Origin: Eubacteriaceae bacterium
Lineage (GTDB): Bacteria; Bacillota; Clostridia; Eubacteriales; Eubacteriaceae
Assembly (NCBI GenBank): GCA_017405085.1
Contig: JAFRBB010000046.1
Location: forward strand, 1 to 33,705
DNA: 33,705 nucleotides
Direction: 5' to 3'
Part shown: positions 263 to 18,129 of the stretch, piece after piece
Layout of the letters: each line of letters starts with the position of its first letter
Numbering within the stretch: position 1 is the stretch's first letter
The notes under the pieces: generated by a model
What the model was told of the DNA's origin: nothing
The model's database searches: none
What the model saw: only the letters and a program-made list of their open reading frames with translations
Position numbers and translations under genes: made by a program

Positions 263-1411
263 TCAATAATAGACATCTTCGGAATAACTGACTTCATTTT
301 CGGGAATCTGCACTTCCACCTGACCGCCGATGGGAGAGCCGTTGTCCGAACCGGGACCGTAGGTGGAGGGATCCGCCGCCGAGCCGTGGGAGAGACCGGT
401 TGTGGAGACGATGTTGTTACTGATCATCTTGACGGTATCCGACGGGGTGTAGTCGTTGTTTTCACCGTAGATGAGCTTGTGGAGCATCACGGCGTTGTCT
501 TCCAGCGTGACGGGAACCACATAGGAGGTTTCGTTGATGTCGGCTGTGGTGTTGTAGCCGTCGAAAGGAATCCGCCCGTTTTTGAAGGTCTTGTTGCTGA
601 GGGACATATAAGCGCCGGCGTATTGGGTGATTTCATTCAACGAGAAAGAGGTTTGAATATAGGGATAAACCTTGTTGATGATGTTGAGGGTTGTCATAAT
701 GTCGGCGTTGATGGCTTTGTCAAACATGGCTTTGACCACTTCGCGCTGCCTTTCGGTGCGGCCGTAATCGTCATCGGAATAGCGGTTGCGGCAATAGGCG
801 AGGGCTTGGACGCCGGTGAGGGTCTGCATGCCCGTCCGTTCCAAATAGGGATCGTTGTGACCGGTTTTTTCGTTGACATCGCCGATGTATTGATTGGTCC
901 AATAGACCACTTCGCCGTTTTTCACATCGATATCGACGCCGCCCAAAGCGTCAACGCTGTCGACCAGGCAATTGAAATTGACGACGACATAATCACTGAT
1001 GTTCATGTCAAAGTTCTCGTTGATGGTCTGGATGGACTGCTGGGGGCCGCCGTACATATAGGCCGCGTTGATTTTGTCGTAGTTTTCTTCGTTGTTGCTG
1101 CCGGCGGGAATGCGCACGTAAAGGTCCCGCATGATGGAGGTGACTTGAACATCGCCTTCGTTTAAATCGATGGAAGCGATCATGATGGTGTCGGTGCGGT
1201 CACCGTCGACGTCCTCGCGACCGTCAATCCCGAAGAGGGCGACGTTGATGACGTCGGTGTTGGACAGGGTGTTGATGCTCAAGGCGCTTTCGTTAAGACG
1301 CTGGCCGGAGCCGAGGCCTGCCAGAATGTTGTAGGCATAAATGGCGCCGCTGCCGAGAAAGACCAGTAAAATCGCTAAAACAATGGATAATATTTTCTTT
1401 TTTAAACTCAT
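263..1411 (-). CDS. LytR-CpsA-Psr (LCP) family cell-wall polymer ligase
   Basis: LCP proteins transfer undecaprenyl-linked glycopolymers (teichoic acids, capsules, rhamnans) to peptidoglycan on the outer face of the membrane. The 382-residue product has a short basic N-terminus and one membrane segment (about residues 6-28). The LCP domain follows, with the family's pyrophosphate-binding charged residues: GIDGR (61-65), RTD (72-74), MRDLYV (94-99), the DALGGVDIDV block (154-163), and the Arg-rich CRNRYSDDDYGRTERQ block (207-222). The last ~50 residues are a Ser/Gly/Pro-rich acidic tail. The ATG at 1411 is preceded by GGAGAAAAC on the minus strand. It diverges from the dTDP-rhamnose operon across a 240-base promoter region, so it is the obvious candidate to attach the polymer made by this locus. 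The polymer specificity itself is inferred from context. Confidence 0.93.
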   Translation of the reverse strand: MSLKKKILSIVLAILLVFLGSGAIYAYNILAGLGSGQRLNESALSINTLSNTDVINVALFGIDGREDVDGDRTDTIMIASIDLNEGDVQVTSIMRDLYVRIPAGSNNEENYDKINAAYMYGGPQQSIQTINENFDMNISDYVVVNFNCLVDSVDALGGVDIDVKNGEVVYWTNQYIGDVNEKTGHNDPYLERTGMQTLTGVQALAYCRNRYSDDDYGRTERQREVVKAMFDKAINADIMTTLNIINKVYPYIQTSFSLNEITQYAGAYMSLSNKTFKNGRIPFDGYNTTADINETSYVVPVTLEDNAVMLHKLIYGENNDYTPSDTVKMISNNIVSTTGLSHGSAADPSTYGPGSDNGSPIGGQVEVQIPENEVSYSEDVYY

Positions 1412-1651: not shown

Positions 1652-2515
1652 ATGAAAATCTTACTTACCGGATGCGGCGGTCAGCTCGGAAGGGAACTGA
1701 CACGCCAGCTTAAACAAAAAGGCACACCCTTTGCGGGATATGATATTCCCGAATTTGATATTACCGATAAAGCGGCGATGGCGGCGATCATCGATCGTGA
1801 AAATCCCGATGTTGTCATTAATTGCGGCGCGATGACCAACGTTGACGGTTGCGAAACCCAAGAAGCCGCGGCGACAGCCATCAACGGCGAAGGCCCCGGA
1901 AAGCTTGCCGAGCTTACCGCCGAGCGGGATATTGTGCTGGTTCACGTCTCCACGGATTATGTGTTTGACGGCAAGGGCATTTCGGAGAACGGCCGGATCC
2001 GCCCCTATACGGAAGCCGATCCCATCGATCCCCAAACCGTATACGGAAAAAGCAAAGCCCTTGGTGAAAAACTCGTCAAAGAAAACGCCGAAAAATATTT
2101 TATCGTACGCACGGCCTGGCTGTACGGGGACGGTCACAATTTTGTCAAAACGATGTTAAAGCTCGCCGAAAACCACGACAAATTGACGGTGGTTGCCGAT
2201 CAGGTCGGCTCGCCGACGAGCACCGTTGATCTTGCCCGGGCGATTTTGGCTTTGATTGAGACCGATGCCTACGGCATTTATCACGGCACCTGTGAAGGCA
2301 TGTGCTCGTGGTATGATTTTGCCTGTGAAATCTTCAAGCTTAAAGGCATCGATATCGATGTTGCTCCCGTTACCTCCGAGGAATATCCCAGCAAGACGCC
2401 GAGACCCAAGTATTCGGTTTTGGAAAACGCGGGACTTGCCGCCCTCGGTCTCAATGTTTTCAGACCCTGGCGGGATGCGCTTGTCGACTATTTAAATTGG
2501 CTTGATGAATCTTAA
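1652..2515 (+). CDS. rfbD: dTDP-4-dehydrorhamnose reductase (RmlD)
   Basis: It catalyses the last step of dTDP-L-rhamnose synthesis, the NAD(P)H-dependent reduction of dTDP-4-keto-L-rhamnose in the cytoplasm. The 287-residue protein is a short-chain dehydrogenase-type Rossmann enzyme of normal RmlD length. It shows the nucleotide-binding GCGGQLG at residues 7-13, STDYVFDG (100-107) and the catalytic YGKSK (Tyr131, Lys135). The ATG follows AAGGTG with good spacing. It is the first gene of rfbD-rfbA-rfbC-rfbB, 21 bases before rfbA, behind a near-consensus promoter. The order D-A-C-B places the final enzyme first. Confidence 0.95.
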   Translation: MKILLTGCGGQLGRELTRQLKQKGTPFAGYDIPEFDITDKAAMAAIIDRENPDVVINCGAMTNVDGCETQEAAATAINGEGPGKLAELTAERDIVLVHVSTDYVFDGKGISENGRIRPYTEADPIDPQTVYGKSKALGEKLVKENAEKYFIVRTAWLYGDGHNFVKTMLKLAENHDKLTVVADQVGSPTSTVDLARAILALIETDAYGIYHGTCEGMCSWYDFACEIFKLKGIDIDVAPVTSEEYPSKTPRPKYSVLENAGLAALGLNVFRPWRDALVDYLNWLDES

Positions 2516-2536
2516 GGAAAAAAGGAGTTTTTCGAT

Positions 2537-3430
2537 ATGAAAGGTATTATTCTCGCGGGCGGTTCGGGAACCCGCCTTTATCCCATTACCCGGGCTGTGT
2601 CCAAGCAGCTTTTGCCCATTTATGACAAACCGATGATTTATTATCCGCTTTCAACCTTGATGCTTTCGGGCATTCGGGATATTCTCATCATCTCCACGCC
2701 GCAGGATATCGGCAATTTTGAACGTCTTCTCGGCACCGGCGAAGAATTGGGCCTCCATTTCACCTATAAAGTGCAGGAAGCGCCCAACGGACTAGCCGAA
2801 GCTTTTATTATCGGTGAGGAATTTATCGGCGACGACAAGGTCGCCCTGGTTCTCGGCGACAATATTTTTTACGGCCAAGGCTTTACCTCGTCCTTAAAGG
2901 CCGCGGCGGAGCTGGAACACGGTGCGGTGATTTTCGGCTATCCCGTTCACGATCCCAAACGCTACGGCGTGGTGGAATTCGCGCCTGACGGGACGGTGCT
3001 GTCCATTGAGGAAAAACCCGAGGTGCCCAAATCCAATTTCGCTGTTCCGGGACTTTATTTCTACGATAACGACGTGGTGGACATCGCCAAAAACATCAAG
3101 CCTTCAGCCAGAGGAGAACTGGAAATCACGACCGTCAACGAGACCTATCTCAAACGGGGCGATCTGAAGGTTGAGCTTTTCAGCCGTGGGATGGCCTGGC
3201 TCGATACCGGCACCCACGACAGCTTAATTGAAGCGTCCAATTTTGTGGAAACCATTCAAAAACGCCAGGGACTTTATGTGTCCTGCGTTGAGGAAATTGC
3301 TTTTCTCAGAGGCTTTATTGATAAAGAACAATTGATTAAACTAGCGGAGCCCATGAAAAAAACAGCATATGGTGAGTATTTGATTAAACGCGCGACGGAA
3401 GGCAGGGAGGTAAGCTATGGCAGCCATTAA
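2537..3430 (+). CDS. rfbA: Glucose-1-phosphate thymidylyltransferase (RmlA)
   Basis: It makes dTDP-glucose from dTTP and glucose-1-phosphate, the entry step to dTDP-L-rhamnose. The 297-residue product has the nucleotidyltransferase signature GGSGTRLYP (8-16), Lys23 in SKQLLP, and LGDNIFYG (106-113), whose Asp108 is the expected metal ligand. Length matches the family. AAAGGAG precedes the ATG. Its end overlaps the rfbC start by 14 bases, indicating translational coupling. Confidence 0.96.
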
Positions 3431-3980
3431 AATCGAACAGACGGGCATTGAAGGCCTTGTGATTGTACATCCTCAGGTGTTCGGCGATGAACGCGGCTAT
3501 TTTATGGAAACCTATAATCAACAGACGTTTAATGAAGCCGGTCTGGATATGGTTTTTGTGCAGGATAATGAATCGCGTTCCCGCAAAGGCGTGCTTCGCG
3601 GTTTGCATTTCCAGACCAAACACAGCCAGGGCAAGCTTGTCCGCGCCACCGAAGGCACGGTGTGGGATGTCGGCGTCGATTTGCGCGCGGGTTCTCCCAC
3701 CTACGGCAAATGGGCCGGCGTGACCTTAAGCGCTGAAAACCATACGATGTTCTATATCCCCGAGGGGTTTGCCCACGGTTTTGTGGTGCTTTCCGATACG
3801 GCGACTTTCAATTATAAATGCACCGATTTTTATCACCCCGAATACGACGGCGGCATTCGCTGGAATGATCCGGACATCGGCGTCAAATGGCCTGTCGACG
3901 ATATGGATTCCCTTATCCTTTCCGAAAAGGATGAAAAACAGCCTTTCTTAAAAGATGTGCGTGATCAGTTGCAATTTTAA
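3417..3980 (+). CDS. rfbC: dTDP-4-dehydrorhamnose 3,5-epimerase (RmlC)
   Basis: It epimerises dTDP-4-keto-6-deoxyglucose at C3 and C5 to give the L-rhamno configuration. The 187-residue cupin has the family blocks GDERGYFME (23-31), VLRGLHFQ with the catalytic His64, [11 protein letters not shown] (112-122) and the [20 protein letters not shown] region (about 133-152). The ATG lies inside the end of rfbA and is preceded by GGAGGT within that gene. Confidence 0.95.
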
Positions 3981-3997
3981 AACACATCTTTTATAAT
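3969..3997 (+). promoter_or_regulatory. Internal promoter ahead of rfbB
   Basis: TTGCAA (3969-3974), a 17-base spacer and a perfect TATAAT (3992-3997) overlap the end of rfbC. They would allow rfbB and possibly downstream genes to be transcribed separately from rfbDAC. Confidence 0.5.
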
Positions 3998-4054
3998 ACA
4001 TCAGTTATCCGACGCGCCTGGTCTTTGCCACGCGCCAATGAAAGGAGCTTTCTC

Positions 4055-5164
4055 TTGAAAACCATACTTGTAACAGGCGGTGCCGGCTTTATCGGCTCCA
4101 ATTTTGTCAAATATCAATTAAATACCCATACCGATGACATTATCGTCAATTTGGACGCGCTGACCTATGCCGGCAATCTTGAAAATTTAACGGACGTCGA
4201 AGAAAACCCCAACTATGTCTTTATCAAAGGGGATATTGCCGACAAAGCTTTTGTTGACGCGCTGTTTTCCGAATATAATTTTGACTATGTGGTCAATTTC
4301 GCGGCGGAATCCCATGTGGACCGCAGCATCGAAAATCCCGAAATCTTTGTCAAAACCAACATTTTGGGGACGCAAATTCTGTTAAACGCGGCCAAAAACG
4401 CCTGGCAAACAGGCAAAGATGACGAAGGTTATCCCACCTATAAAGAAGGGGTGAAATATCTTCAAGTCTCCACCGACGAAGTATACGGCGCGCTGGGCAA
4501 AACCGGTATGTTTACCGAAACCACCCCGATTACGCCCAACAGCCCCTATTCCGCGTCCAAAGCCAGTGCCGATTTGCTGGTTCGCGCCTATGGCAATACC
4601 TTCAAATTTCCGATGAACATCACGCGTTGCTCCAACAATTACGGCCCCAATCAATTCCCGGAAAAACTCATTCCTTTGATGATTGCCAACGTTATCGATC
4701 TTAAAGAGCTGCCGATTTACGGCGACGGGATGCAGGTTCGCGATTGGCTTCACGTTAAAGATCATTGCAGCGGCATTGACACCGTGCTTCGACAAGGCCG
4801 TTTAAACGAAGTGTATAACATCGGCGGAAACAATGAAAAAGCCAACATCCAAATCGTCGATCTTATCATTGAAAACGTCAAAAAACGTCTGGAAGAAGGG
4901 GCTTATCCCGACATTAAAACCGACTATACCAAAATTTCCGACGATTTAAAAATTCATGTCGAGGACCGCTTGGGTCACGATAGACGCTATGCCATTGACA
5001 ACACCAAAATTACCACCGAACTGGGATGGGAACCCTCCTACACCTTTGAGGAAGGCATTGTCGAGACCATCGACTGGTATCTCGGCCACCAGGATTGGGT
5101 GGCTCAGGTGAAATCCGGCGGCTATCAGGAATATTACGAAAAAATGTACTCAAAGAAAAAATAA
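4055..5164 (+). CDS. rfbB: dTDP-glucose 4,6-dehydratase (RmlB)
   Basis: It converts dTDP-glucose to dTDP-4-keto-6-deoxyglucose, step two of dTDP-rhamnose synthesis. I place the start at the TTG at 4055: AAAGGAG lies eight bases upstream and the protein then begins directly with the Rossmann strand (KTILVTGGAGFIG). An upstream in-frame TTG at 4025 would only add ten unrelated residues. The 369-residue product shows TGGAGFIG (7-14), the catalytic Thr140-Asp141-Glu142, and YSASK with Tyr165 and Lys169. It closes the rhamnose operon and is followed by a terminator. Confidence 0.95.
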   Translation: MKTILVTGGAGFIGSNFVKYQLNTHTDDIIVNLDALTYAGNLENLTDVEENPNYVFIKGDIADKAFVDALFSEYNFDYVVNFAAESHVDRSIENPEIFVKTNILGTQILLNAAKNAWQTGKDDEGYPTYKEGVKYLQVSTDEVYGALGKTGMFTETTPITPNSPYSASKASADLLVRAYGNTFKFPMNITRCSNNYGPNQFPEKLIPLMIANVIDLKELPIYGDGMQVRDWLHVKDHCSGIDTVLRQGRLNEVYNIGGNNEKANIQIVDLIIENVKKRLEEGAYPDIKTDYTKISDDLKIHVEDRLGHDRRYAIDNTKITTELGWEPSYTFEEGIVETIDWYLGHQDWVAQVKSGGYQEYYEKMYSKKK

Positions 5165-6134: not shown

Positions 6135-7409
6135 ATGACACAGGACAACACCATTATCAGCGTTCGCGATCTGACCAAAATCTACTATATCTATGCCAAA
6201 CCCAAGGACCGCCTGAAAGAAGCGTTTTCCTTAACGCGCAAAAAATATCATACGGATTTTTATGCTTTAAGAGACATTAATTTTGATGTTAAAGAAGGGG
6301 AATGTTTCGGCATTATCGGCAAAAACGGCTCTGGTAAGTCCACTTTGCTCAAAATTATTACCGGGGTGCTTACTCAAACGAAGGGTGATGTCAATATCAA
6401 CGGGCGCATTTCGGCGCTTTTGGAACTCGGCGCCGGCTTTAACCAGGAATACACCGGCATCGAAAATGTTTATTTAAACGGCGATATCATGGGTTTTACC
6501 AAAGAAGAGATGGACGCCAAGCTCGATGAAATCATTGAATTTGCCGATATCGGCGATCACATCAATCAACCGGTCAAAACCTATTCGTCGGGGATGTTTG
6601 TGCGTCTGGCTTTTGCTTTGGCCATCAATGTGGATCCCGAAATTCTCATTGTAGACGAGGCGCTGTCCGTTGGGGACGCCTTTTTCCAATTAAAATGCTA
6701 CAAAAAATTCATGGACTTCAAACGCCGGGGCAAAACCATCATTTTCGTCACCCACGATTTAAGTTCCGTGATTAAATATTGCGACCGCGTGATGGTCTTA
6801 AACGAAGGCGATCAGATTGAAATCGGCGAAGCCCGGGATATGGTCGACTTGTATAAAAAAATTCTTGTCAATCAGGAAAACAAAGGCAAGGATAAAGAAA
6901 GCGGCAAGGAATTGCTCGATTCCGGCCTGATCAAAAGCAATGTGCCCCTCAGTGAAAATATCATTGATTACGGCACGAAACAGGCCGAGTTTACCGAGAT
7001 CAATCTATATAATCGAAAGGGTGAGGCCGCGGATCAAATCGCTAAATTTGATGAATTGACAATTGCTTTTAAGGTGCGTTTTAACGAAGAGATCCACAAT
7101 CCGATTTTCGCGGTGTCCTATAAAGACATCAAAGGAACGGAACTCACCGGCACCAACAATATGTTTGAAGGTATGGACGGCTTTATCGCAAAAGCGGGAG
7201 AGACCTATGAAGTGAGCTTTAAACAGATCATTCCCTTCCAAAGCGGCAACTATTTTATTTCCCTTGGCTGTACGGGCATTGATGCCGACGGAACCTTTAT
7301 CGTCTATCACCGTTTTTACGATATCATCGATCTTAAAGTCATTTCCGAAAAGGATACGGTTGGATTCTTTGATACCAATACGGAGATCTCAATTAACAAA
7401 CTTTCATAA
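6135..7409 (+). CDS. wzt: ABC exporter ATPase with C-terminal extension (Wzt-like)
   Basis: It is the ATPase partner of the preceding permease. Residues 1-250 form the nucleotide-binding domain: Walker A GKNGSGKS (62-69), signature YSSGM (150-154), Walker B ILIVDE (170-175) and H-loop His207. A charged linker (about 240-270) leads to a C-terminal domain of about 155 residues with alternating beta-strand character. This matches the layout of Wzt proteins, whose C-terminal beta-sandwich binds the capped non-reducing end of the polymer. TagH and simple RgpD-type ATPases lack such a domain or carry a different one. GGGGGCGCAGG upstream gives a strong ribosome site. It is followed after 12 bases by the methyltransferase-kinase gene, which supports substrate recognition through a cap. 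Confidence 0.92.
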   Translation: MTQDNTIISVRDLTKIYYIYAKPKDRLKEAFSLTRKKYHTDFYALRDINFDVKEGECFGIIGKNGSGKSTLLKIITGVLTQTKGDVNINGRISALLELGAGFNQEYTGIENVYLNGDIMGFTKEEMDAKLDEIIEFADIGDHINQPVKTYSSGMFVRLAFALAINVDPEILIVDEALSVGDAFFQLKCYKKFMDFKRRGKTIIFVTHDLSSVIKYCDRVMVLNEGDQIEIGEARDMVDLYKKILVNQENKGKDKESGKELLDSGLIKSNVPLSENIIDYGTKQAEFTEINLYNRKGEAADQIAKFDELTIAFKVRFNEEIHNPIFAVSYKDIKGTELTGTNNMFEGMDGFIAKAGETYEVSFKQIIPFQSGNYFISLGCTGIDADGTFIVYHRFYDIIDLKVISEKDTVGFFDTNTEISINKLS

Positions 7410-7421
7410 CGAGGTGAGATA

Positions 7422-9659
7422 ATGGCAAACTGGCATTTGGAATTTTATCAAGATGACACCGGTTACTCCGACGGCGATATTGAGCTTGAAATGCTTGATG
7501 TTGTCAAAAATCATACAGACTATCATTCGGTTCTGTCCACGGATGACCGTTGGCCGATGTTTTATCATTTAAGCGAGCTCAGACACAATGTTTTCAGTTG
7601 GTATCCGTTTGAAAAAAACGCGTCTCTATTGGAAATCGGTTCCGGCTGCGGCGCGCTCACAGGACTTTTTTGCGAAAAAGTCGATCATGTCACATCGGTT
7701 GAGCTGACCAAAATCCGCTCGGAAATTAATTTTGAGCGCAACAAAAAATACGATAACTTAGATCTTTTCACCGGCAATTTCAACGCGATGACCTTTCCCG
7801 AACAGTTTGACTACATCATTTTAAACGGCGTGCTGGAATACGCGGTGAGCTTTACCGAGGGCGATTCACCCTTTGTCACCTTTCTCTCAGGCATTCGCAA
7901 TCTTCTCAAAAAAGACGGCGTACTGCTCATTGCCATCGAAAACAGACTCGGTCTCAAATACTTCAACGGCGCCGTCGAAGACCATACCTCCGCGCTTTTC
8001 AGCGGTCTTGACGCGTATCGCGATGTTGATTTTGTGCGGACCTTTTCCAAAGGTGAAATGAACACGCTTCTTGATGACAGCGGATATGGCGACAGACGCT
8101 TTTATTATCCCTTTCCCGACTACAAATTTCCGATGGAAATTTTGACCGATGCTACGATCAACACCATGGACTTTTCTTATCGGCGGACCAACGCAGCCTA
8201 TGACCACGACCGTCTTAATTTCTTTGACGAAAACAAAATGCTTGAGACCTTAAGATCCGAGGGGGTTTGCGATCGCTTCGCTAATTCTTTTATTGTCGAG
8301 GTCAAAAAATCGGGAATCCTTGCGGACAACGGCATTGAATACGTCAAATTCAGCAATAACCGACGGAAGAATTTTAATATTACAACGTTTATCAATCGTG
8401 AAAATGGCAAACGCATTGTCAAAAAAACAGCGATGAGCGATGGGGCCAAAACGCATCTGGACAAAATGATCAATCATTACAAAAGACGCCAAAATAACCA
8501 AGGTACTTTTTTGTACGCGCCGGTTTATTCGATAAAAGACGGGCTGACGATGGCTTATTTTAAACTGCCGACGATGGAAAGCGTGTTAAACACCTACCTG
8601 AAAATCGGCGATTTCGATGCCTTTAATCGGGAAATCGACGCTTTAAAAGCCTATATGAATCAGGGCGCTGAGTCGGTCGCTTACGGGGATTCGCCGGATT
8701 TTGTGTCTGTTTTCGGAAACGAAGGAATCCGTCACGACGCCGAACCGTGTCAAACCCATGCCAATATCGACTTGCTTTTCGGCAATATTTTCATGAATCG
8801 AGAACAAGGCAAATACTACATTATTGACTACGAATGGGTGTTTGATTTTGCCATTCCCGTCAAATTCATTTTGTGGCGCTGCCTGTTTTATTACTATTTG
8901 TCCAGCGCGGAAATCACCTATCGATATACCCTTTCGGAATTTTTGGAAAGACACGGTATCACAGAGGATGATCATGCGCGTTATCTTCGCTGGGAAGCGC
9001 ATTTCACCGACGAATATGTCTCGGATCATCCCGTTTCCCTGCGGTATGTCAAAGAAACCTATTATCAGACACCGGCTTTAAATCAGTTTATCAGGGATTT
9101 TGATCGCTCGGTGGAAATTTATTATGGACAATCCGGTGTTTTCACCGCCGATATGATGATCACGGACACTTTGTCTTTGGTCAGAGATCGTTTTAGGATT
9201 GATGTCGATCTGGACGCGTTGCGGAGTCAATGCGATGACGAACATATACCTGATACCTTCCGTATTGATCCCTGCAATCAATCCTGTGTTATCGGCGATC
9301 TTACGGTCACCGATGACAAGGGAGAAAAAATCGTCTTTGAAACCAACGCTTTCGACCATCACGAAAGGGATCTGATGTTCATGGACGATGATCCCCAAAT
9401 CATCGTGTCTGGTATTTCAGATCAAACAAAATCGCTTCATCTTGAGGGAAGCCTTAAGCGTTATGCCCTCATTGATCGCGTCAACGCTATTTCCCGAATG
9501 AAAGCGGAGTTGACCGAACGTCTGGCGGCAATGGAAAATGAAAAGAATATCATCGAACAGCAATATATCAACGTCAACGACCAGTTGACAGCGATTAAAA
9601 ACAGCGCTGCTTGGAAGGCGTCTGCCCCTTTAAGAAAAGCGAGAAAGCTGTTAAAATAA
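7422..9659 (+). CDS. WbdD-like methyltransferase/kinase-like/coiled-coil protein
   Basis: The 745-residue cytoplasmic protein has four visible parts. Residues ~1-245 are a class I SAM methyltransferase with motif I LLEIGSGCGALTG (69-81) and an acidic strand end (VEL, 93-95). Residues ~305-600 resemble an aminoglycoside/choline-kinase-like fold: VKK at 333-335 may supply the nucleotide lysine, NIDLLFGN (448-455) fits the D-x4-N catalytic loop (Asp450, Asn455), and YYIIDYEW (465-472) gives the metal-binding Asp469. Residues ~610-680 look beta-rich. Residues 683-725 form a regular heptad coiled coil (L683, V687, I690, L697, L701, M704, I711, Y715, V718, L722, I725). This order matches enterobacterial WbdD, which phosphorylates and methylates the chain end and sets length with its coiled coil. 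The methyltransferase call is firm. The kinase is plausible but has Asn instead of His before the catalytic Asp region. The role is inferred from architecture and from the adjacent Wzm/Wzt genes. Confidence 0.8.
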   Translation: MANWHLEFYQDDTGYSDGDIELEMLDVVKNHTDYHSVLSTDDRWPMFYHLSELRHNVFSWYPFEKNASLLEIGSGCGALTGLFCEKVDHVTSVELTKIRSEINFERNKKYDNLDLFTGNFNAMTFPEQFDYIILNGVLEYAVSFTEGDSPFVTFLSGIRNLLKKDGVLLIAIENRLGLKYFNGAVEDHTSALFSGLDAYRDVDFVRTFSKGEMNTLLDDSGYGDRRFYYPFPDYKFPMEILTDATINTMDFSYRRTNAAYDHDRLNFFDENKMLETLRSEGVCDRFANSFIVEVKKSGILADNGIEYVKFSNNRRKNFNITTFINRENGKRIVKKTAMSDGAKTHLDKMINHYKRRQNNQGTFLYAPVYSIKDGLTMAYFKLPTMESVLNTYLKIGDFDAFNREIDALKAYMNQGAESVAYGDSPDFVSVFGNEGIRHDAEPCQTHANIDLLFGNIFMNREQGKYYIIDYEWVFDFAIPVKFILWRCLFYYYLSSAEITYRYTLSEFLERHGITEDDHARYLRWEAHFTDEYVSDHPVSLRYVKETYYQTPALNQFIRDFDRSVEIYYGQSGVFTADMMITDTLSLVRDRFRIDVDLDALRSQCDDEHIPDTFRIDPCNQSCVIGDLTVTDDKGEKIVFETNAFDHHERDLMFMDDDPQIIVSGISDQTKSLHLEGSLKRYALIDRVNAISRMKAELTERLAAMENEKNIIEQQYINVNDQLTAIKNSAAWKASAPLRKARKLLK

Positions 9660-9676
9660 TCATCCCGATCAACATT

Positions 9677-9700
9677 GAAACGAAGGGTCGTTTCGTTTTG
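9677..9700 (+). terminator. Possible weak terminator or attenuator
   Basis: GAAACGA (9677-9683) pairs with TCGTTTC (9688-9694) around an AGGG loop, followed by GTTTTG. The T-tract is short, so transcription may only be reduced before the glycosyltransferase gene. Confidence 0.35.
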
Positions 9701-9860: not shown

Positions 9861-12002
9861 ATGGAAAACAATAATATTGTAATTTATGTCGACAGTGTCG
9901 CAAGAAATCGCGAGGAGATGACCTTTAGTCTTTTTGGCTGGGCCATTGACAATGTGACTCATGAACTCGTGAGTATCAGCGTTGAGGATAATCCCTCCGT
10001 TGCAAACGTCGAGATCGAGAGTATCTTGCGTTATGATGTCAATCCGATCTTTATGCTGCCCCAGGATGCCGAGTGCGGGTTTTACATCAAGATTGATCTC
10101 AAAGCTTTTGACAATGTGGTCAATATCGTCTTTGAAAATAACGGTCACAGATCTGTGCAGAGTTTTGATATGCGTAAAAAATACTGTCATTTGATGGAAG
10201 AGGGAAATCCCCAGCGCAAACGGTATGAAATTCTTCAAAAGGTTCAAAAATACACCAAGCGAAGTGGTCTCAAAAACGCCATCAAAGGGATTTTTCACCG
10301 GGTGACCAACAACGATTCTTTCTATCAAACCTGGATTGATCGCAATGAGACAAAAAGCGACGCCGAATATAAGGCCGAGCTTGAAAAAGCACCGATCAAA
10401 CCGCTGATTTCCGTTGTGATGCCGACGTATAACGTTGAGTCGATCTATCTGAAAAAATGCATTCAATCGGTCATTGATCAATATTATGACAATTGGGAAC
10501 TTTGCATTGCCGATGATTGCTCCACCCTCGCGTCAGTCCGTGAGACTTTGGAAGAATTCAAAGATCGGGACGCCAGAATTCACGTCACTTACCGTGAGAA
10601 AAACGGGCATATTTCGGCAGCAACCAACACGGCCATTGCCATGGCGAAGGGAGAATTTGTCTGTCTTTTGGATAATGACGACACTTTGGCTCCCAATGCT
10701 TTGGCCGAAGTGGTTTTAGCCATTAATGAAAATCCCGATGTGGATTTAATCTACAGCGATGAAGACAATATCACCGCGGACGACAAGCGAAAAACACCGT
10801 ATTTCAAAAGCGATTTCGCGCCGGACAGCTTGATGTGCAACAATTATATTTGCCACATCAGCGTTTATCGCAAGTCAATTTTGGATGAGGTCGGGGGATT
10901 TAGAGTCGGGTACGAAGGCGCCCAGGATCATGATTTACTCCTTCGCGTCACGGAAAAAACCGACCGTATTGTCCACATTCCCAAAATTTTATATCATTGG
11001 CGTCAGTTAAAAACATCCACCGCCGTCAACACCAAATCCAAAACCTATGCCTATGACGCGGGGATTCGCGCAGTCAGCGACGCCATCGAGCGGCGGGGTC
11101 TTAAAGGGGAGGTTACTCCCGGAGAGCTTCCCGGTCACTATAAAGTGCATTATGAGATCACCGAAGATCATTTGGTATCGATCGTGATTCCCACTCGGGA
11201 CGGCGCCGACATTTTGAAAGTCTGCATCGATTCCATTTTGGAAATAACAGACTATCCTTCCTATGAAATCATTATTGCCGATAACGGCAGCGAAAAAGAA
11301 GAAACGTTGTCGCTTTTCAAACATTATACCGAAACCTATCCGGACAAAATTAAAGTGGTGCGCATCGACATTCCCTTTAATTTTGCCAGAATCAACAACA
11401 TTGCCGTCAGGGAAGCGTCAAAAGGCGATATGCTGCTTTTCTTAAACAACGATACCGAAGTGATCCGAAAGGATTGGCTGACCCAAATGGTTGCCCTGTG
11501 TCAGTTAAAACACATCGGTGCCGTCGGCGCGAAGCTTTATTATCCCGATGATACCATTCAGCACGCCGGCGTTGTCGTCGGGCTCGGGGGTGCCGCGGGA
11601 CATATTCACTACAATTTTCCGAAGGATTCCAAAGGGTATTTCGGCAAGCTCGTCAGCACAACCAATTATCTGGCGGTAACCGCCGCCTGTCTGATGGTCC
11701 GCCGCGAAGTCTTTGACGAAGTTGACGGCTATACGGAGTCTTTCGTGATTGCCTTTAATGACATTGATTTTTGCCTCAAAATTTACGATCACGGCTATTA
11801 TAATGTCTGGACACCGGAAGCGGAACTTTATCATTTTGAATCCAAATCCCGGGGATACGAAGACAGTCCGGAAAAGAAAAAGCGTTTTATCGGCGAAATC
11901 AACAGACTCAAACAAGCATGGCCCGAATACATTGCCAGGGATCCATTTTACAGTCCGAATCTGACATTGGCTAAAAACGATTTTTCCATCAATCTGGAAT
12001 AA
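9861..12002 (+). CDS. Tandem-domain family 2 glycosyltransferase (rhamnan/surface glycan type)
   Basis: The 713-residue cytoplasmic protein has three parts. Residues 1-105 form a beta-rich domain. A first GT-A family 2 domain starts near residue 182 (ISVVMPTYN) with DNDD (271-274) as its metal-binding motif and QDHD (355-358) as its acceptor-site motif. A second GT-A domain starts near 438 (VSIVIPTRDG) with NNDTE (529-533) and FNDIDF (632-637). Both catalytic motifs are intact, so each half could add a different residue or linkage, as in polymerising rhamnosyltransferases. AGAGGT precedes the ATG. With dTDP-rhamnose genes, exporter and cap enzyme upstream, it is the best candidate chain-building enzyme. 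Donor and linkage are not readable from sequence. Its last ~55 codons reappear in decayed form around 14498-14645. Confidence 0.9.
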   Translation: MENNNIVIYVDSVARNREEMTFSLFGWAIDNVTHELVSISVEDNPSVANVEIESILRYDVNPIFMLPQDAECGFYIKIDLKAFDNVVNIVFENNGHRSVQSFDMRKKYCHLMEEGNPQRKRYEILQKVQKYTKRSGLKNAIKGIFHRVTNNDSFYQTWIDRNETKSDAEYKAELEKAPIKPLISVVMPTYNVESIYLKKCIQSVIDQYYDNWELCIADDCSTLASVRETLEEFKDRDARIHVTYREKNGHISAATNTAIAMAKGEFVCLLDNDDTLAPNALAEVVLAINENPDVDLIYSDEDNITADDKRKTPYFKSDFAPDSLMCNNYICHISVYRKSILDEVGGFRVGYEGAQDHDLLLRVTEKTDRIVHIPKILYHWRQLKTSTAVNTKSKTYAYDAGIRAVSDAIERRGLKGEVTPGELPGHYKVHYEITEDHLVSIVIPTRDGADILKVCIDSILEITDYPSYEIIIADNGSEKEETLSLFKHYTETYPDKIKVVRIDIPFNFARINNIAVREASKGDMLLFLNNDTEVIRKDWLTQMVALCQLKHIGAVGAKLYYPDDTIQHAGVVVGLGGAAGHIHYNFPKDSKGYFGKLVSTTNYLAVTAACLMVRREVFDEVDGYTESFVIAFNDIDFCLKIYDHGYYNVWTPEAELYHFESKSRGYEDSPEKKKRFIGEINRLKQAWPEYIARDPFYSPNLTLAKNDFSINLE

Positions 12003-12071: not shown

Positions 12072-14255
12072 ATGGAAATTAAAAGTTTAACGACAATTTA
12101 CCAAGAGGACAAAAAGCGCTTTTGGCTGAAGCTTGCCGGCATGGTTGCCGCGGCTTTGGCCGTTGCTTTTGCGTTGAGCATTTACTTCGCGATTTTGGAA
12201 GAACGGGTGACGCTATCGGGATTGCTTCATGTCAACCCCCTTAGCTTAATTCGTGTTCATCAGTGGCTTTTGGTTTTTGCTGTTATCCTTGTCACGATGT
12301 TTGCCGCGCTCTTTTATCGCAGGGAAGCCTGTCATTATTTATTTAAATACAGGTTCCTTATTGCCGGCATTGCCTTTATCCTTTGCGTAATCCTAGAAAT
12401 CAACGGATCATCCTTCGGAAATTGGGGGGCCGCGATCACCGGTGTTCCCGCTCAGCCACTGATCGGAATAAGTCGAGAAATCCGTTCTGACGAATGGATG
12501 GTTTTCACACCGATGGCCATATCGCAATATGTCAATCCCATGGGAAGCTTTGGGTATTTTAACTCGCTTCTTCGGGCGGCTCCGACGGATTATTTTATGG
12601 TTTACGGTCAGCCCGTTAGGGATATCGCCATGATTTTCCGCCCCTTTCAAATCGGCTATCTCTTCCTTAGCGAAGGGCAGGGAATGGCTTTTTATTGGTG
12701 CGGAAGAATCATCGCCCTTTTTTTGGTATCTTTTGAATTCGGACGATTGTTGACCAAGGATCGCAGAGTCCTTTCGGTGGTTTACGCGGCGCTTCTTACT
12801 TTTTCACCGGTTGTTCAATGGTGGTTTTCCGTCAACGGGCTAGTGGAAATGCTGGTTGCCGGACAACTGATGATTGTGATAACCGACCGGTATATCGAAG
12901 ATCATGAAGCACTATGGAAAAAAGCGCTCTATTCCTTAGCGTTTTTTATCTGCGCCGGCACCTATGCCTTTACCCTTTATCTCTCATGGGAAATCCCGCT
13001 GGCTTTTATCTTTTTCGCCCTTTTTGTGTGGGTGATCGCGACGAAAAGGAAATCAATTCGGATTTCTTTGGTTGACGGGCTGTTTTTGGGACTGGGCGCT
13101 TTGATGTTGGTTGCGGTGTCCGCCCATATTTTCATTCAGTCTTGGGATGCCATCCAGACCGTTTTGCACACGGCCTATCCGGGAGAACGGCTGGAAAACG
13201 GCGGATTCGGGTTTTTTAGTCTTTTCGATTATCCGCTGACAATCTATTATCCGATTAAGGAATTAGAGCTCAATCAGGTTGTCTGTGAAGAAGCGTTTTT
13301 TTACGACTTTTTCCCATTGGGAATTTTGCTGACAATCTATTTGTTGCTGAAAGACGAAAAAAAAGACGGTCTCAGTATTATTTTTGTGCTTTTTTTTGCG
13401 GTGTTCGCTTGGAGGATTATCATGCCGTGGCCGGCATGGCTCTCGAAAATCACTTTGTTGTCCAAAGTTCTGAGCAATCGCTTGGTCATGGTGGTCAGTT
13501 GGCTTAATCTTTTGCTGTTGATTCGCGGGTTAGCGCTCATTCCGGATGAGTCCGGGAGTCAAAAACGGTCGTGGCCATTTGCTGCGGCAAGTGTTGCCTT
13601 TTCGATTGCGATTGTGGTGATGTCCGCGCTTATTCAAAAGAATTATGTTAATCCGATCATTGCGGCTTTATCGTTCGGCCTTTTATTCTTGGGAACATTG
13701 GGGATTGCCTTGTCTCGCCGTCCTTACGGCAAAGGACTCTTGCTTGCCGGGATTTTTATCATTTGTTTCTTTTCGGGCATGACGGTCAATCCGGTCAATC
13801 GGGGGCTTGACACGGTCAAAACGCAAACTTTGTATCAGACGATCAAGCAAAACAACAAAAAGGAAGATATCTGGATTGTTGAGGGAATGAAAGACTACGC
13901 CATTCCGCGGAACAATTATCCAATGATGGCCGGGGCCGCTACGATTAACACAACCAATACCTATCCGAACATGGACAGATGGCGGACGCTCACATCCGAT
14001 CCGTCACAAGAAGACATGTTCAACCGATATGCGCACATTGTTCTTGAAGTCGCTCCGAATGTTGATTTTGAGCCGGAACTACTTCAACCGGATCTTATTT
14101 TAGTCAAGCTAAATCCGTCGTATCTCAAACAATTAAACGTGACAAAAATACTGTCCGGGCGGAATTTGACGGCAATGTCGACGGATGCGGTTTCATTCCA
14201 AAGTGTTGCCGAAGATTCCGGCTACACGATATTTGAAGTACGATATCAACAATAG
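12072..14255 (+). CDS. Polytopic membrane protein, GT-C-like glycosyltransferase candidate (copy 1)
   Basis: The 727-residue product has about 12-13 hydrophobic segments between residues ~18 and 580 and a hydrophilic C-terminal domain of about 140 residues (~590-727). After the third segment is a loop with RSDEWMVFTP (138-147). An acidic Asp-Glu pair in an early extracytoplasmic loop is the usual catalytic signature of GT-C enzymes that use polyprenyl-phosphate sugars, so Asp140/Glu141 are candidate catalytic residues. Families such as GtrII, YfhO or unnamed DUF membrane proteins have the same plan. I cannot assign one exactly. It lies 69 bases after the tandem glycosyltransferase and upstream of a GtrB-like donor synthase, which fits a role in adding side groups to the exported polymer. 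It is a close paralogue of the protein at 14742-16925. Confidence 0.75.
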   Translation: MEIKSLTTIYQEDKKRFWLKLAGMVAAALAVAFALSIYFAILEERVTLSGLLHVNPLSLIRVHQWLLVFAVILVTMFAALFYRREACHYLFKYRFLIAGIAFILCVILEINGSSFGNWGAAITGVPAQPLIGISREIRSDEWMVFTPMAISQYVNPMGSFGYFNSLLRAAPTDYFMVYGQPVRDIAMIFRPFQIGYLFLSEGQGMAFYWCGRIIALFLVSFEFGRLLTKDRRVLSVVYAALLTFSPVVQWWFSVNGLVEMLVAGQLMIVITDRYIEDHEALWKKALYSLAFFICAGTYAFTLYLSWEIPLAFIFFALFVWVIATKRKSIRISLVDGLFLGLGALMLVAVSAHIFIQSWDAIQTVLHTAYPGERLENGGFGFFSLFDYPLTIYYPIKELELNQVVCEEAFFYDFFPLGILLTIYLLLKDEKKDGLSIIFVLFFAVFAWRIIMPWPAWLSKITLLSKVLSNRLVMVVSWLNLLLLIRGLALIPDESGSQKRSWPFAAASVAFSIAIVVMSALIQKNYVNPIIAALSFGLLFLGTLGIALSRRPYGKGLLLAGIFIICFFSGMTVNPVNRGLDTVKTQTLYQTIKQNNKKEDIWIVEGMKDYAIPRNNYPMMAGAATINTTNTYPNMDRWRTLTSDPSQEDMFNRYAHIVLEVAPNVDFEPELLQPDLILVKLNPSYLKQLNVTKILSGRNLTAMSTDAVSFQSVAEDSGYTIFEVRYQQ

Positions 14256-14741: not shown

Positions 14742-16925
14742 ATGGAAATTAAAAACTTAACGACAATTTATCGAGAGGATAAGAAAAGCTTTTGGCTAAA
14801 GCTTGCCGTTATGTTCACAGTGGCTTTGTTTGCGGCTTTCGCCTTAGGCGTATATTTTGCCCTTTTGGAAGTTCGCGTAATGCCTTCGGAGTTATTTCAT
14901 GTGAACTGGTTGGGTCTAATCCGATTCAAAGAGTGGCTTTTGGTTTTCGCCGTGGTCCTTGCCGTATTGTTCGCCGCTTTTTTTTATCGAAAAGAGACCT
15001 GTCATTATCTATTTAAATACAGATTTCTCATTGCCGGCATTGTCTTTATCATCTGTGTTATCCTTGAACTCAACGGATCGTCTTTCGGAAATTGGGGACT
15101 GGTCGTCGGCAAAGAAGCCACGAACCCGCTGATTGGCACAAACAGGCTGATTCGCACCGATGAATGGATGGTTTTCACGCCGATGGCCGTTTCACAATAT
15201 GTCAATCCCCTGGGAAGCTTCGGCTATTTTAACTCGCTTCTGCGGGCGGCGCCGACGGATTATTTTGTGGTTTACGGTCAAGCTGTCAAGGATATCGCCA
15301 TGATATTCCGCCCCTTTCAAATCGGCTATCTTTTTCTTAACGAAGGGCAGGGAATGGCTTTTTTCTGGTGCGGAAGAATCATTGCCCTGTTTTTGGCCTC
15401 CTTTGAATTCGGGCGGGTGTTGACCAAAGATCGCAGGGTTCTCTCGGTGGTCTACGCGGCGCTTCTAACTTTTTCTCCTGCCGTTTCGTGGTGGTTTTCC
15501 GTCAATGGTTTGGTGGAAATGTTGGTGGCCGGACAACTGATGATTGTGTTAACCGACCGATATATCGAAGATCATGAGGCCATGTGGAAAAAAGCGCTGT
15601 ATTCCTTAGCGTTTTTTATCTGCGCCGGCATCTATGCCTTTACCCTTTATCCCGCTTGGGAAATTCCTTTGGCCTTTATCTTTTTCGCCCTTTTTGTCTG
15701 GGTGATTGTGACGAAAAGACAATCAATTCGGATTTCTTTGGTTGACGGACTGTTTTTGGGACTGGGCGCTTTGGTGTTGATTGCGGTATCCGGCCATATT
15801 TTCATTCATTCCTGGGACGCGATTCAGACCGTTTTGCACACGGCTTATCCCGGAGAGCGCCTGGAAAGCGGGGGAGGTAGTTTTTTATTCCTCTTTAATT
15901 ATCCGTTTACGACATATTTCCCCATCAAGGAAACAGAGCTTGTTAGAAATGTTTGTGAGGAAGCCTTTATTTATGACTTCTTCCCACTGGGAATTTTAAC
16001 AGCGTGCTATCTTTTTATCAAAGAAAAGAGAAAAGATGGGCTAAGCATCATGCTGCTTGTCTTTTTCGCTGTATTCGCGGCGAGACTGATTGTGCCATGG
16101 CCGGCGTGGCTGTCAAAAATCACTTTGTTATCAAAAGTATTAACCAATCGTCTGGTCATGGTGGTCGGATGGATTAATCTTTTGCTTTTGATCCGCGGTT
16201 TAGCGCTGATTCAAGTTGAGCCCGGCAGTCAAAAACGCCTTTGGCCCTATGCCGCGGCAAGCGTTGGGTTTTCGCTTGCGGTTGTCGTGATGGCTTCTTT
16301 TGTCCAAAAGGATTATGCATCTTCACTGATTTGGGTCTTTACATTCGGCCTTTTGACGTTGGGCACATTGAGCATTGTCTTTTATCATCGCCCTTATGGC
16401 AAAGGAATGATGCTCGCGGTGATTTTTATCATTTGTTTCTTTTCGGGCATGACGGTCAATCCCGTCAATCGGGGACTTGGCACAGTGAAGGCCCAAACTT
16501 TGTATCAGAGCATCAAGCAAATCAATCAGCAGAAAGATGTCTGGGTTGTTGACAGCGTGGATGATATAGGCAGACGCCTTGACAATTATCCGATCATGGC
16601 CGGCGCCGCCACCCTCAACACAACCAATACTTATCCGAATATGGACAGATGGCGGGGGATCACATCCGATCCGGCACATGAAGAAATATTTAATCGATAT
16701 GCGCATATTGCCATCGAAATTAATCGCGACGCCGATTTTCAGGTTGCCCTACCCAATCCGGATTCGATTTCAATTAAGATGAACCCGTCGTATCTCAAAC
16801 GATTGGGCGTGACAAAATTATTGTCCGGACGGGATTTGACGGCAATATCAACACCGTCGGTTGCTTTCAAAAAAATTGCCGAAGATTCCGGTTACTATAT
16901 ATATGATGTGACGTATCAACAATGA
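14742..16925 (+). CDS. Polytopic membrane protein, GT-C-like glycosyltransferase candidate (copy 2)
   Basis: The 727-residue protein has exactly the same length as the protein at 12072-14255 and is roughly three-quarters identical by eye across its whole length. It keeps the acidic loop as RTDEWMVFTP (138-147). The central segments (residues ~140-370) are nearly the same. Differences concentrate in the first 70 residues, in the loop after PGERLE (~370-430), and in the extracytoplasmic C-terminal domain (~590-727), which could reflect changed donor or acceptor preference. GAAACGGAGAG precedes the ATG. It arose by tandem duplication, and both frames are intact. The GtrB-like gene follows after a terminator. 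The substrate is unknown. Confidence 0.75.
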   Translation: MEIKNLTTIYREDKKSFWLKLAVMFTVALFAAFALGVYFALLEVRVMPSELFHVNWLGLIRFKEWLLVFAVVLAVLFAAFFYRKETCHYLFKYRFLIAGIVFIICVILELNGSSFGNWGLVVGKEATNPLIGTNRLIRTDEWMVFTPMAVSQYVNPLGSFGYFNSLLRAAPTDYFVVYGQAVKDIAMIFRPFQIGYLFLNEGQGMAFFWCGRIIALFLASFEFGRVLTKDRRVLSVVYAALLTFSPAVSWWFSVNGLVEMLVAGQLMIVLTDRYIEDHEAMWKKALYSLAFFICAGIYAFTLYPAWEIPLAFIFFALFVWVIVTKRQSIRISLVDGLFLGLGALVLIAVSGHIFIHSWDAIQTVLHTAYPGERLESGGGSFLFLFNYPFTTYFPIKETELVRNVCEEAFIYDFFPLGILTACYLFIKEKRKDGLSIMLLVFFAVFAARLIVPWPAWLSKITLLSKVLTNRLVMVVGWINLLLLIRGLALIQVEPGSQKRLWPYAAASVGFSLAVVVMASFVQKDYASSLIWVFTFGLLTLGTLSIVFYHRPYGKGMMLAVIFIICFFSGMTVNPVNRGLGTVKAQTLYQSIKQINQQKDVWVVDSVDDIGRRLDNYPIMAGAATLNTTNTYPNMDRWRGITSDPAHEEIFNRYAHIAIEINRDADFQVALPNPDSISIKMNPSYLKRLGVTKLLSGRDLTAISTPSVAFKKIAEDSGYYIYDVTYQQ

Positions 16926-17163: not shown

Positions 17164-18129
17164 ATGAAAACAGCAGTCCTTATTCCGTGTTATAACGAGT
17201 CACAGACAGTCGAAAAAGTCATTAAAGATTTTAGAGAAGCGCTGCCCGACGCGGATATCTATGTTTATGATAATAATTCATCCGACGGGACCGATGAAAT
17301 CGCGAGAAACGCCGGTGCCATTGTGCGCTATGAATATCGCCAAGGAAAGGGCAATGTCGTGCGAAGCATGTTCCGCGATATTGATGCCGACTGCTATATT
17401 ATGGTGGACGGTGACGATACTTATCCCGCTGAATTTGCCAAAGATCTCGAAAAAGCGGTACTCGAGGGTAAAGCCGACATGTCCATCGGCGATCGCTTAT
17501 CCGCCACATATTTCGAAGAAAATAAAAGACCGTTTCACAACATGGGCAACAAATTGGTCAGAGGTTTGATCAATGTGCTCTATAAATCCGATGTGCGGGA
17601 TATCATGACCGGGATGCGCGGCTTCAGCTATGATTTTGTCAAATCTTTCCCCGTGTTATCCGAAGGATTTGAAATTGAAACGGAAATGACGATTTTCGCC
17701 CTCGACCACAATTTTAAACTCAAGGAAATCCCCATCCAATACCGTGACCGTCCCGAAGGCAGCGAATCAAAACTCAACACCTATTCCGATGGGGCCAAGG
17801 TGCTTCGCACCATCATGCGGCTGTTTCGAGATACCAAACCCTTTGCGTTTTTTACCGGAACATCGATGATCATTCTGGCGGGAAGCGGCGCGTTGTTCCT
17901 GCCGGTTTTGAAGGAATACCGAAAGACGGGGAAAGTCAAACGTTTCCCGACCCTCATTGTGACCAGCGCCGCCGCGACGGTCGGTGTCATGAATTTCTTC
18001 AGCGGTGTGGTGCTTCAGGTGCTTCGCAAACAGCATATGCAGAATTTTGAGCAAAATCTCAATACCATCAGACATCAAAAGCGTCTGCTCGATGCCGAAG
18101 AAGCAAAAAAATCCCAAAAAACCAAATAA
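17164..18129 (+). CDS. GtrB-like polyprenyl-phosphate glycosyltransferase
   Basis: Family 2 enzymes of this type load a sugar onto undecaprenyl phosphate on the cytoplasmic face. The lipid-sugar is then flipped and used by GT-C enzymes. The 321-residue protein has the N-terminal GT-A start VLIPCYNE (5-12), YDNNSSDGT (35-43), QGKGN (60-64), and the metal motif DGDDTYP (82-88). The central MTGMRGFS and the ETEMTIFA region are typical of DPM1/GtrB relatives. Two hydrophobic segments lie near residues 227-248 and 262-285, and the tail is basic. GGGAGGAG precedes the ATG. It sits just after two GT-C-like proteins, the donor/acceptor pairing expected of an outside-decoration system. The sugar loaded cannot be read from sequence. 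Confidence 0.88.
   Translation: MKTAVLIPCYNESQTVEKVIKDFREALPDADIYVYDNNSSDGTDEIARNAGAIVRYEYRQGKGNVVRSMFRDIDADCYIMVDGDDTYPAEFAKDLEKAVLEGKADMSIGDRLSATYFEENKRPFHNMGNKLVRGLINVLYKSDVRDIMTGMRGFSYDFVKSFPVLSEGFEIETEMTIFALDHNFKLKEIPIQYRDRPEGSESKLNTYSDGAKVLRTIMRLFRDTKPFAFFTGTSMIILAGSGALFLPVLKEYRKTGKVKRFPTLIVTSAAATVGVMNFFSGVVLQVLRKQHMQNFEQNLNTIRHQKRLLDAEEAKKSQKTK

What the first reader, a model, noticed from the sequence alone, without database searches (positions are those of the whole stretch)
7422..9659. WbdD-like chain terminator/ruler architecture
The order methyltransferase (SAM motif at 69-81), kinase-like domain (Asp450, Asn455, Asp469), beta-rich segment and a six-heptad coiled coil (683-725) parallels WbdD, where the coiled coil sets polymer length. 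The coil here is much shorter than in O9a WbdD, which would predict short chains if the ruler principle holds. The residue usually His in the kinase loop differs, so the kinase could be inactive or have altered chemistry.
Basis: partly seen in the sequence, partly recalled or inferred. Interest (0 to 1): 0.72.

Follow-up and report, generated by a model that had tools for sequence, protein, structure and literature searches.

The report
Sugar-chain capping enzyme with built-in ruler
A Clostridia bacterium carries an enzyme that very probably caps a rhamnose surface polymer with a methyl-phosphate group and may set its length through a short coiled-coil spacer, like a capping enzyme proven in Klebsiella O7 in 2024, here in the setting of a Gram-positive cell wall.

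Summary
ORF 7422-9659 (745 aa) has the SAM motif at 69-81, D450/N455/D469, a beta segment and a 44-residue helix (683-726). The WbdD analogy is right in function, but the closest characterised relative is the Klebsiella pneumoniae O7 terminator ORF6 (PMC11231755): methyltransferase, cryptic kinase, Ig-like beta domain, coiled coil. An AlphaFold2 model of residues 300-682 (pLDDT 90) matches APH(3')-Ia (Z 13.2) and amicoumacin kinase AmiN (Z 12.4), the nearest fold to the O7 kinase. The missing His is a family trait; D450, N455 and D469 are conserved in 55-56 of 56 sequences, so 'possibly inactive' is not supported. Wzt with a carbohydrate-binding domain lies directly upstream in 59 of 71 loci. 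The next gene, a tandem GT2, is 46% identical to GT2 modules fused behind the coil in a Pseudomonas homologue. In close orthologues the spacer keeps its length (44-47 residues) at 9-16% identity. Most likely it caps a rhamnan with methyl-phosphate; Wzm/Wzt exports it and LCP attaches it to the wall. Product, oligomer state and ruler action are inferred. New member of a known kind, in a Gram-positive setting not described in the papers read here.

The parts
7422..9659 (+). Predicted chain terminator: methyltransferase-kinase-beta-coil protein, 745 aa
   Evidence: ORF and translation; AF2 model pLDDT 90.2; 80 related loci
7422..8318 (+). SAM-dependent methyltransferase domain, residues 1-299
   Evidence: Pfam Methyltransf_12 E 1.8e-7; fold Z about 16; 34.7% identity over 297 aa to the P. 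asturiensis O7-ORF6-like protein
8319..9107 (+). Cryptic APH/AmiN-like kinase domain, residues 300-562, catalytic D450, N455, D469
   Evidence: Fold comparison Z 13.2 APH(3')-Ia, 12.4 AmiN; conservation 55-56 of 56; encoded as its own gene or fused only to GT modules in many relatives
9108..9461 (+). Beta-sandwich (Ig/CBM-like), residues 563-680
   Evidence: Strands in AF2 models; corresponds in position to the CBM-like domain described for KpO7 ORF6
9468..9599 (+). Coiled-coil spacer, residues 683-726, 44 aa
   Evidence: Single AF2 helix; length 44/44/44/47/47/45 with 9-16% identity in orthologues
9600..9656 (+). C-terminal NSxxWKxSxPLRK tail, predicted amphipathic membrane/polymerase-proximal segment
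   Evidence: 32-58% identical in four of five close orthologues, unlike the coil; in L031 and L013 a like motif lies between coil and GT2 modules; membrane role inferred
6135..7409 (+). Wzt ATPase with C-terminal carbohydrate-binding domain
   Evidence: Pfam ABC_tran and Wzt_C E 2.7e-32; the only Wzt_C in the genome
5262..6119 (+). Wzm, ABC-2 permease
   Evidence: Pfam ABC2_membrane E 5e-16
9861..12002 (+). Tandem GT2 polymerase candidate, presumed partner of the terminator
   Evidence: Pfam Glycos_transf_2 twice; 46% identity over 564 aa to the GT2-GT2 half of the P. asturiensis fused protein
1652..5164 (+). rmlD, rmlA, rmlC, rmlB: dTDP-L-rhamnose pathway
   Evidence: Pfam
263..1411 (-). LytR-CpsA-Psr ligase, candidate for attaching the polymer to the wall
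   Evidence: PF03816; same divergent position in relatives L003 and L004
12072..18129 (+). Two DUF7657/DUF7654 membrane proteins and an AglJ-like GT2: probable extracytoplasmic side-chain module
   Evidence: Pfam/NCBIfam; homologues beside the P. asturiensis terminator; function inferred

Best explanation
The protein is the chain terminator and length-setting scaffold of an ABC-transporter-dependent rhamnan. The polymerase (9861-12002) extends a lipid-linked rhamnan at the inner face of the membrane. The terminator sits beside it through its C-terminal tail; its kinase (300-562) phosphorylates the non-reducing terminal rhamnose and its methyltransferase (1-299) methylates that phosphate, stopping growth. 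The 44-residue coil holds these active sites roughly 65 A from the membrane end so that only chains of a minimum length are capped. The Wzt carbohydrate-binding domain reads the cap, Wzm/Wzt exports the chain, and an LCP enzyme links it to the wall. Shown by computation: domain folds, catalytic residues, gene context, family relation, length-conserved spacer. Inferred: methyl-phosphate cap, rhamnan substrate, ruler action, wall attachment.
For: Kinase fold: APH(3')-Ia Z 13.2, AmiN Z 12.4; the KpO7 ORF6 kinase was also nearest to AmiN and D441A abolished it. D450/N455/D469 in 55/56/55 of 56. The P. asturiensis plasmid protein carries all six published KpO7 ORF6 SAM-site residues at the same numbers (Y28, Y66, G91, G93, E112, Y158) and they align to Y15, Y48, G73, G75, E94, Y140 here; its D443 aligns to D450. 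Wzt with C-domain directly 5' in 59 of 71 loci, often with overlapping codons. Polymerase 46% identical to GT2 modules fused behind the coil there; 22 of 80 loci encode MT-K-GT in one protein, 22 more have MT beside K-GT. Coil 44 aa in the window, L002 and L003 at 14-16% identity. Full rml set. LCP nearby, no Wzy_C ligase detected in the genome.
Against: The KpO7 ORF6 sequence itself was not available, so the link runs through a Pseudomonas protein that matches its published residue numbers. Kinase-domain sequence similarity across phyla is weak (profile hit E about 1e-5 in a tiny database). Heptad periodicity alone is marginal. Some relatives lack an obvious coil (L017, L019, L024, L025, L033), so a ruler is not universal. 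No glycan structure is known for this organism.
Confidence: 0.72

Rival explanations
1. It is a true terminator, but the coil is an oligomerisation and recruitment tether and does not set chain length; length is set by enzyme ratios or export.
For: Several relatives lack a coil yet keep methyltransferase, kinase and Wzt. [quoted passage not shown]
Against: Length is kept at 44-47 residues in close orthologues while the sequence has drifted far, and at about 86-93 in most of a separate fused clade.
Confidence: 0.3
2. The enzyme makes a different cap: phosphate alone, cyclic phosphate, or methyl and phosphate on different hydroxyls.
For: C. difficile Ox247 has a rhamnose-rich S-layer glycan, with rml and ABC genes, that ends in 2,3-cyclophosphoryl-rhamnose (PMC6254364). 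Many relatives encode methyltransferase and kinase as separate genes.
Against: The domain set and order match KpO7 ORF6, which makes 3-O-methylphosphate on rhamnose; methyltransferase and kinase occur together in 77 of 80 loci.
Confidence: 0.2
3. It decorates internal residues of the polymer and is not a terminator.
For: No direct evidence for a terminal position; kinase and methyltransferase could in principle modify repeats.
Against: Tight linkage to Wzt with a carbohydrate-binding domain, fusion to polymerase modules and the coil are the marks of terminators.
Confidence: 0.06
4. It is a WbdD orthologue with a eukaryotic-type kinase.
For: Same order of methyltransferase, kinase and coil as WbdD.
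Against: Kinase best matches are APH/AmiN; a beta domain lies before the coil, as in O7 ORF6. WbdD did not appear among the listed sequence or fold matches, which is inconclusive on its own.
Confidence: 0.06
5. The kinase domain is catalytically dead and only methylation caps the chain, as in E. coli O8 WbdD.
For: The usual catalytic-loop His is Asn448.
Against: The family as a whole lacks the His but keeps Asp, Asn and metal Asp almost without exception.
Confidence: 0.04

Closest known systems
K. pneumoniae O7 ORF6 N-terminal terminator (PMC11231755)
   Same: Methyltransferase, cryptic AmiN-like kinase, Ig/CBM-like beta domain, coiled coil; ABC-transporter locus with rhamnose; SAM-site residues conserved
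   Different: O7 ORF6 is fused to its two GT2 modules; here the polymerase is the next gene. Gram-negative O antigen there, Gram-positive wall context here. Orthologues reported there: alpha- and gammaproteobacteria, cyanobacteria, and a Methanoculleus homologue
E. coli O9a WbdD (PMC3482155)
   Same: Order methyltransferase-kinase-coil-C-terminal recruiting segment; separate dual-GT polymerase; capping needed for export
   Different: Eukaryotic-type kinase, no beta domain reported before the coil, spacer about 200 A, mannan substrate
Geobacillus WsaE (PMC2943079)
   Same: Gram-positive rhamnan, N-terminal methyltransferase terminator fused to rhamnosyltransferases, wzm/wzt beside it
   Different: 2-O-methyl cap, no kinase mentioned in the review
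C. difficile SLCT-11 S-layer glycan locus (PMC6254364)
   Same: Clostridial, rhamnose-rich, ABC-exported glycan with a phosphate-containing non-reducing cap
   Different: Cyclic phosphate; no capping enzyme named in the passages read; protein-linked S-layer glycan

Membership tests
KpO7 ORF6-type methyltransferase-kinase terminators | SAM-site residues Y28, Y66, G91, G93, E112, Y158 | tested here: met
   Align to Y15, Y48, G73, G75, E94, Y140 through the P. asturiensis protein, which has all six at the published numbers
KpO7 ORF6-type methyltransferase-kinase terminators | AmiN-like kinase fold with catalytic Asp (D441) | tested here: met
   AmiN Z 12.4, APH(3')-Ia Z 13.2; D450 in 55 of 56, aligned to D443 of P. 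asturiensis
KpO7 ORF6-type methyltransferase-kinase terminators | Ig/CBM-like beta domain between kinase and coil | tested here: met
   Beta strands 563-680 in both models; its fold was not searched on its own
KpO7 ORF6-type methyltransferase-kinase terminators | Coiled coil after the catalytic domains | tested here: met
   Helix 683-726; periodicity alone marginal; oligomerisation not tested
KpO7 ORF6-type methyltransferase-kinase terminators | ATP- and SAM-dependent 3-O-methylphosphate on terminal rhamnose | not testable with these tools
   Needs enzyme assay
KpO7 ORF6-type methyltransferase-kinase terminators | Direct sequence relation to KpO7 ORF6 | not tested
   Sequence not in the collections reached
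E. coli O9a WbdD | Methyltransferase, kinase, coil in that order | tested here: met
E. coli O9a WbdD | Eukaryotic-type kinase domain | tested here: inconclusive
   Top fold matches are APH/AmiN; WbdD is not listed, which does not exclude it
E. coli O9a WbdD | Trimeric coil about 200 A long | tested here: inconclusive
   Helix of 44 residues, about 65 A; oligomer state not testable here
ABC-transporter-dependent, cap-recognising export | Wzt with C-terminal carbohydrate-binding domain | tested here: met
   Wzt_C E 2.7e-32, only copy in the genome
ABC-transporter-dependent, cap-recognising export | The binding domain recognises the cap | not testable with these tools
   Needs binding assay

The most novel reading that the evidence does not exclude
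Clostridia build wall-attached rhamnans whose length is read by a coiled-coil ruler and proof-read by a methyl-phosphate cap, a system so far worked out in Gram-negative O antigens. The ruler evolves in heptad steps: relatives carry in-coil DNA tandem repeats of 21, 84 and 105 bp, so slippage could change chain length.
Probability: 0.3. Interest if true: 0.65.

Novelty: new member of a known kind. Interest (0 to 1): 0.45.

Why it matters
It extends a terminator family proven only in 2024 in Klebsiella to a large set of Clostridia, including gut Lachnospiraceae, and ties it to Gram-positive wall polymers. The natural spread of coil lengths (none, about 45, about 90, over 100 residues) gives a ready-made test of the ruler idea across species. 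It also offers a candidate type of enzyme for phosphate-capped clostridial glycans.

Tried and rejected
Pfam and NCBIfam found no kinase. A PDB profile search with the kinase alignment gave only chance-level hits. A whole-model fold search was filled by methyltransferases, so the kinase region was folded alone. WbdD did not appear among listed matches; this does not exclude it. The WbdD coil-ruler paper (PMC4650267) is not held. A literature search for glucorhamnan loci gave nothing useful. RNA structure at the start codon is no better than shuffles, and no Rfam family matches. A first idea that the six O7 residues map here by a constant offset of 18 held for five; Y28 maps to Y15.

Full report
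What was claimed and what is there. Pfam sees a methyltransferase only. AlphaFold2 on a 64-sequence alignment gives mean pLDDT 90.2: methyltransferase 1-299, kinase-like 300-562, beta-sandwich 563-680, a single helix 683-726 and a short C-terminal helix 735-744.

The kinase. Residues 300-682 folded alone (pLDDT 90.5) match aminoglycoside phosphotransferase APH(3')-Ia (Foldseek E 4e-5; Z 13.2, 205 residues at 4.0 A) and amicoumacin kinase AmiN (Z 12.4, 210 residues at 3.8 A). Among 56 sequences D450 is kept in 55, N455 in 56, D469 in 55; E471 and W472 are invariant. The usual catalytic-loop His is Asn (49) or Asp (5) in the 54 sequences aligned at that position; the two gammaproteobacterial sequences are gapped there in the alignment but carry no His two residues before the Asp either.

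The right relative. K. pneumoniae O7 ORF6 (PMC11231755) has a methyltransferase, an unannotated kinase whose nearest structure is AmiN, an Ig-like CBM-type domain, a coiled coil and GT2 modules; it adds 3-O-methylphosphate to terminal rhamnose, and D441A kills the kinase. Its sequence was not in reach. A Pseudomonas asturiensis plasmid protein (1457 aa) carries all six published ORF6 SAM-site residues at identical numbers, and these align to Y15, Y48, G73, G75, E94 and Y140 of the window protein; its D443 aligns to D450. Its methyltransferase is 34.7% identical to the window protein's over 297 aa and its C-terminal GT2 pair is 46% identical to the next gene in the window over 564 aa. The window therefore appears to hold the O7-type machine split over two genes.

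Context. The operon-like run is rmlDACB, wzm, wzt with a carbohydrate-binding domain, terminator, tandem GT2, two DUF7657/7654 membrane proteins and an AglJ-like GT2. Among loci with enough upstream sequence, 59 of 71 have Wzt with its C-domain directly 5' of the methyltransferase; the commonest arrangement is a short overlap of the two reading frames. Of the 80 related loci, 22 encode methyltransferase-kinase-GT in one protein, 22 a methyltransferase beside a kinase-GT, 20 methyltransferase-kinase and 13 two separate genes. An LCP gene lies divergently upstream here and in L003 and L004; the genome has two LCP genes, one Wzt_C and no detectable Wzy_C ligase. This favours attachment to the wall over an S-layer-type ligase, by inference.

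The ruler. In the five closest full-length relatives the methyltransferase is 51-82% identical to the window's, the kinase 26-48%, the beta domain 18-32% and the coil 9-16%, yet coil length is 44, 44, 47, 47 and 45 against 44 here. For L002 and L003 the 44 residues preceding the conserved NSxxW/YK tail show 7 and 6 identities against about 3 in shuffles. A spacer that drifts in sequence but keeps its length is what a ruler or fixed tether predicts. A separate clade with fused GT modules (most of L036-L063) keeps about 86-93 residues by the same crude measure. Other relatives have no clear coil (L017, L019, L024, L025, L033), so the ruler is not universal. At 1.5 A per residue the window coil spans about 65 A against about 200 A in O9a WbdD (PMC5082667); shorter chains follow if the principle holds, but this is untested.

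Distribution. The protein occurs in 11 of 67 genomes of the window's order, and the kinase profile in 6 of 299 genomes drawn across the phylum. It is patchy, as expected for a serotype-like locus, and related proteins occur on gammaproteobacterial plasmids.

Verdict. Very probably a methyltransferase-kinase chain terminator of the K. pneumoniae O7 ORF6 type, in a Gram-positive rhamnan locus. The WbdD analogy is right in mechanism and less apt for the kinase's family. Cap chemistry, substrate, oligomer state and length control need experiments.

Noticed in passing
L013:10889-16495 (aa 415-442), L040:10846-12135 (aa 346-429), L022:10863-11978 (aa 270-335): In-coil DNA tandem repeats of 21 bp (4 copies, 93% match), 105 bp (2.4 copies, 89%) and 84 bp (2.4 copies, 77%), all whole heptads, suggesting that the coil lengthens in heptad steps.
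   Followed up: partly
window 12072-14255 and 14742-16925: Two tandem DUF7657/DUF7654 membrane proteins, 74% identical over 727 aa; a distant homologue lies beside the P. asturiensis terminator. Probable GT-C-like side-chain transferases served by the AglJ-like GT2 at 17164-18129.
   Followed up: partly
window 9676-9695: Terminator-like hairpin with a T run just after the terminator gene's stop codon, within a 200-bp gap before the polymerase gene; might uncouple terminator and polymerase expression.
   Followed up: no
L005:10001-15676: A 1892-aa protein carrying methyltransferase, kinase, beta domain and coil followed by a long extension with glycosyltransferase-like sequence.
   Followed up: no
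C. difficile SLCT-11 locus (PMC6254364): Its cyclophosphoryl-rhamnose cap has no enzyme assigned in the passages read; a search of that locus for this methyltransferase-kinase family would be worthwhile.
   Followed up: no
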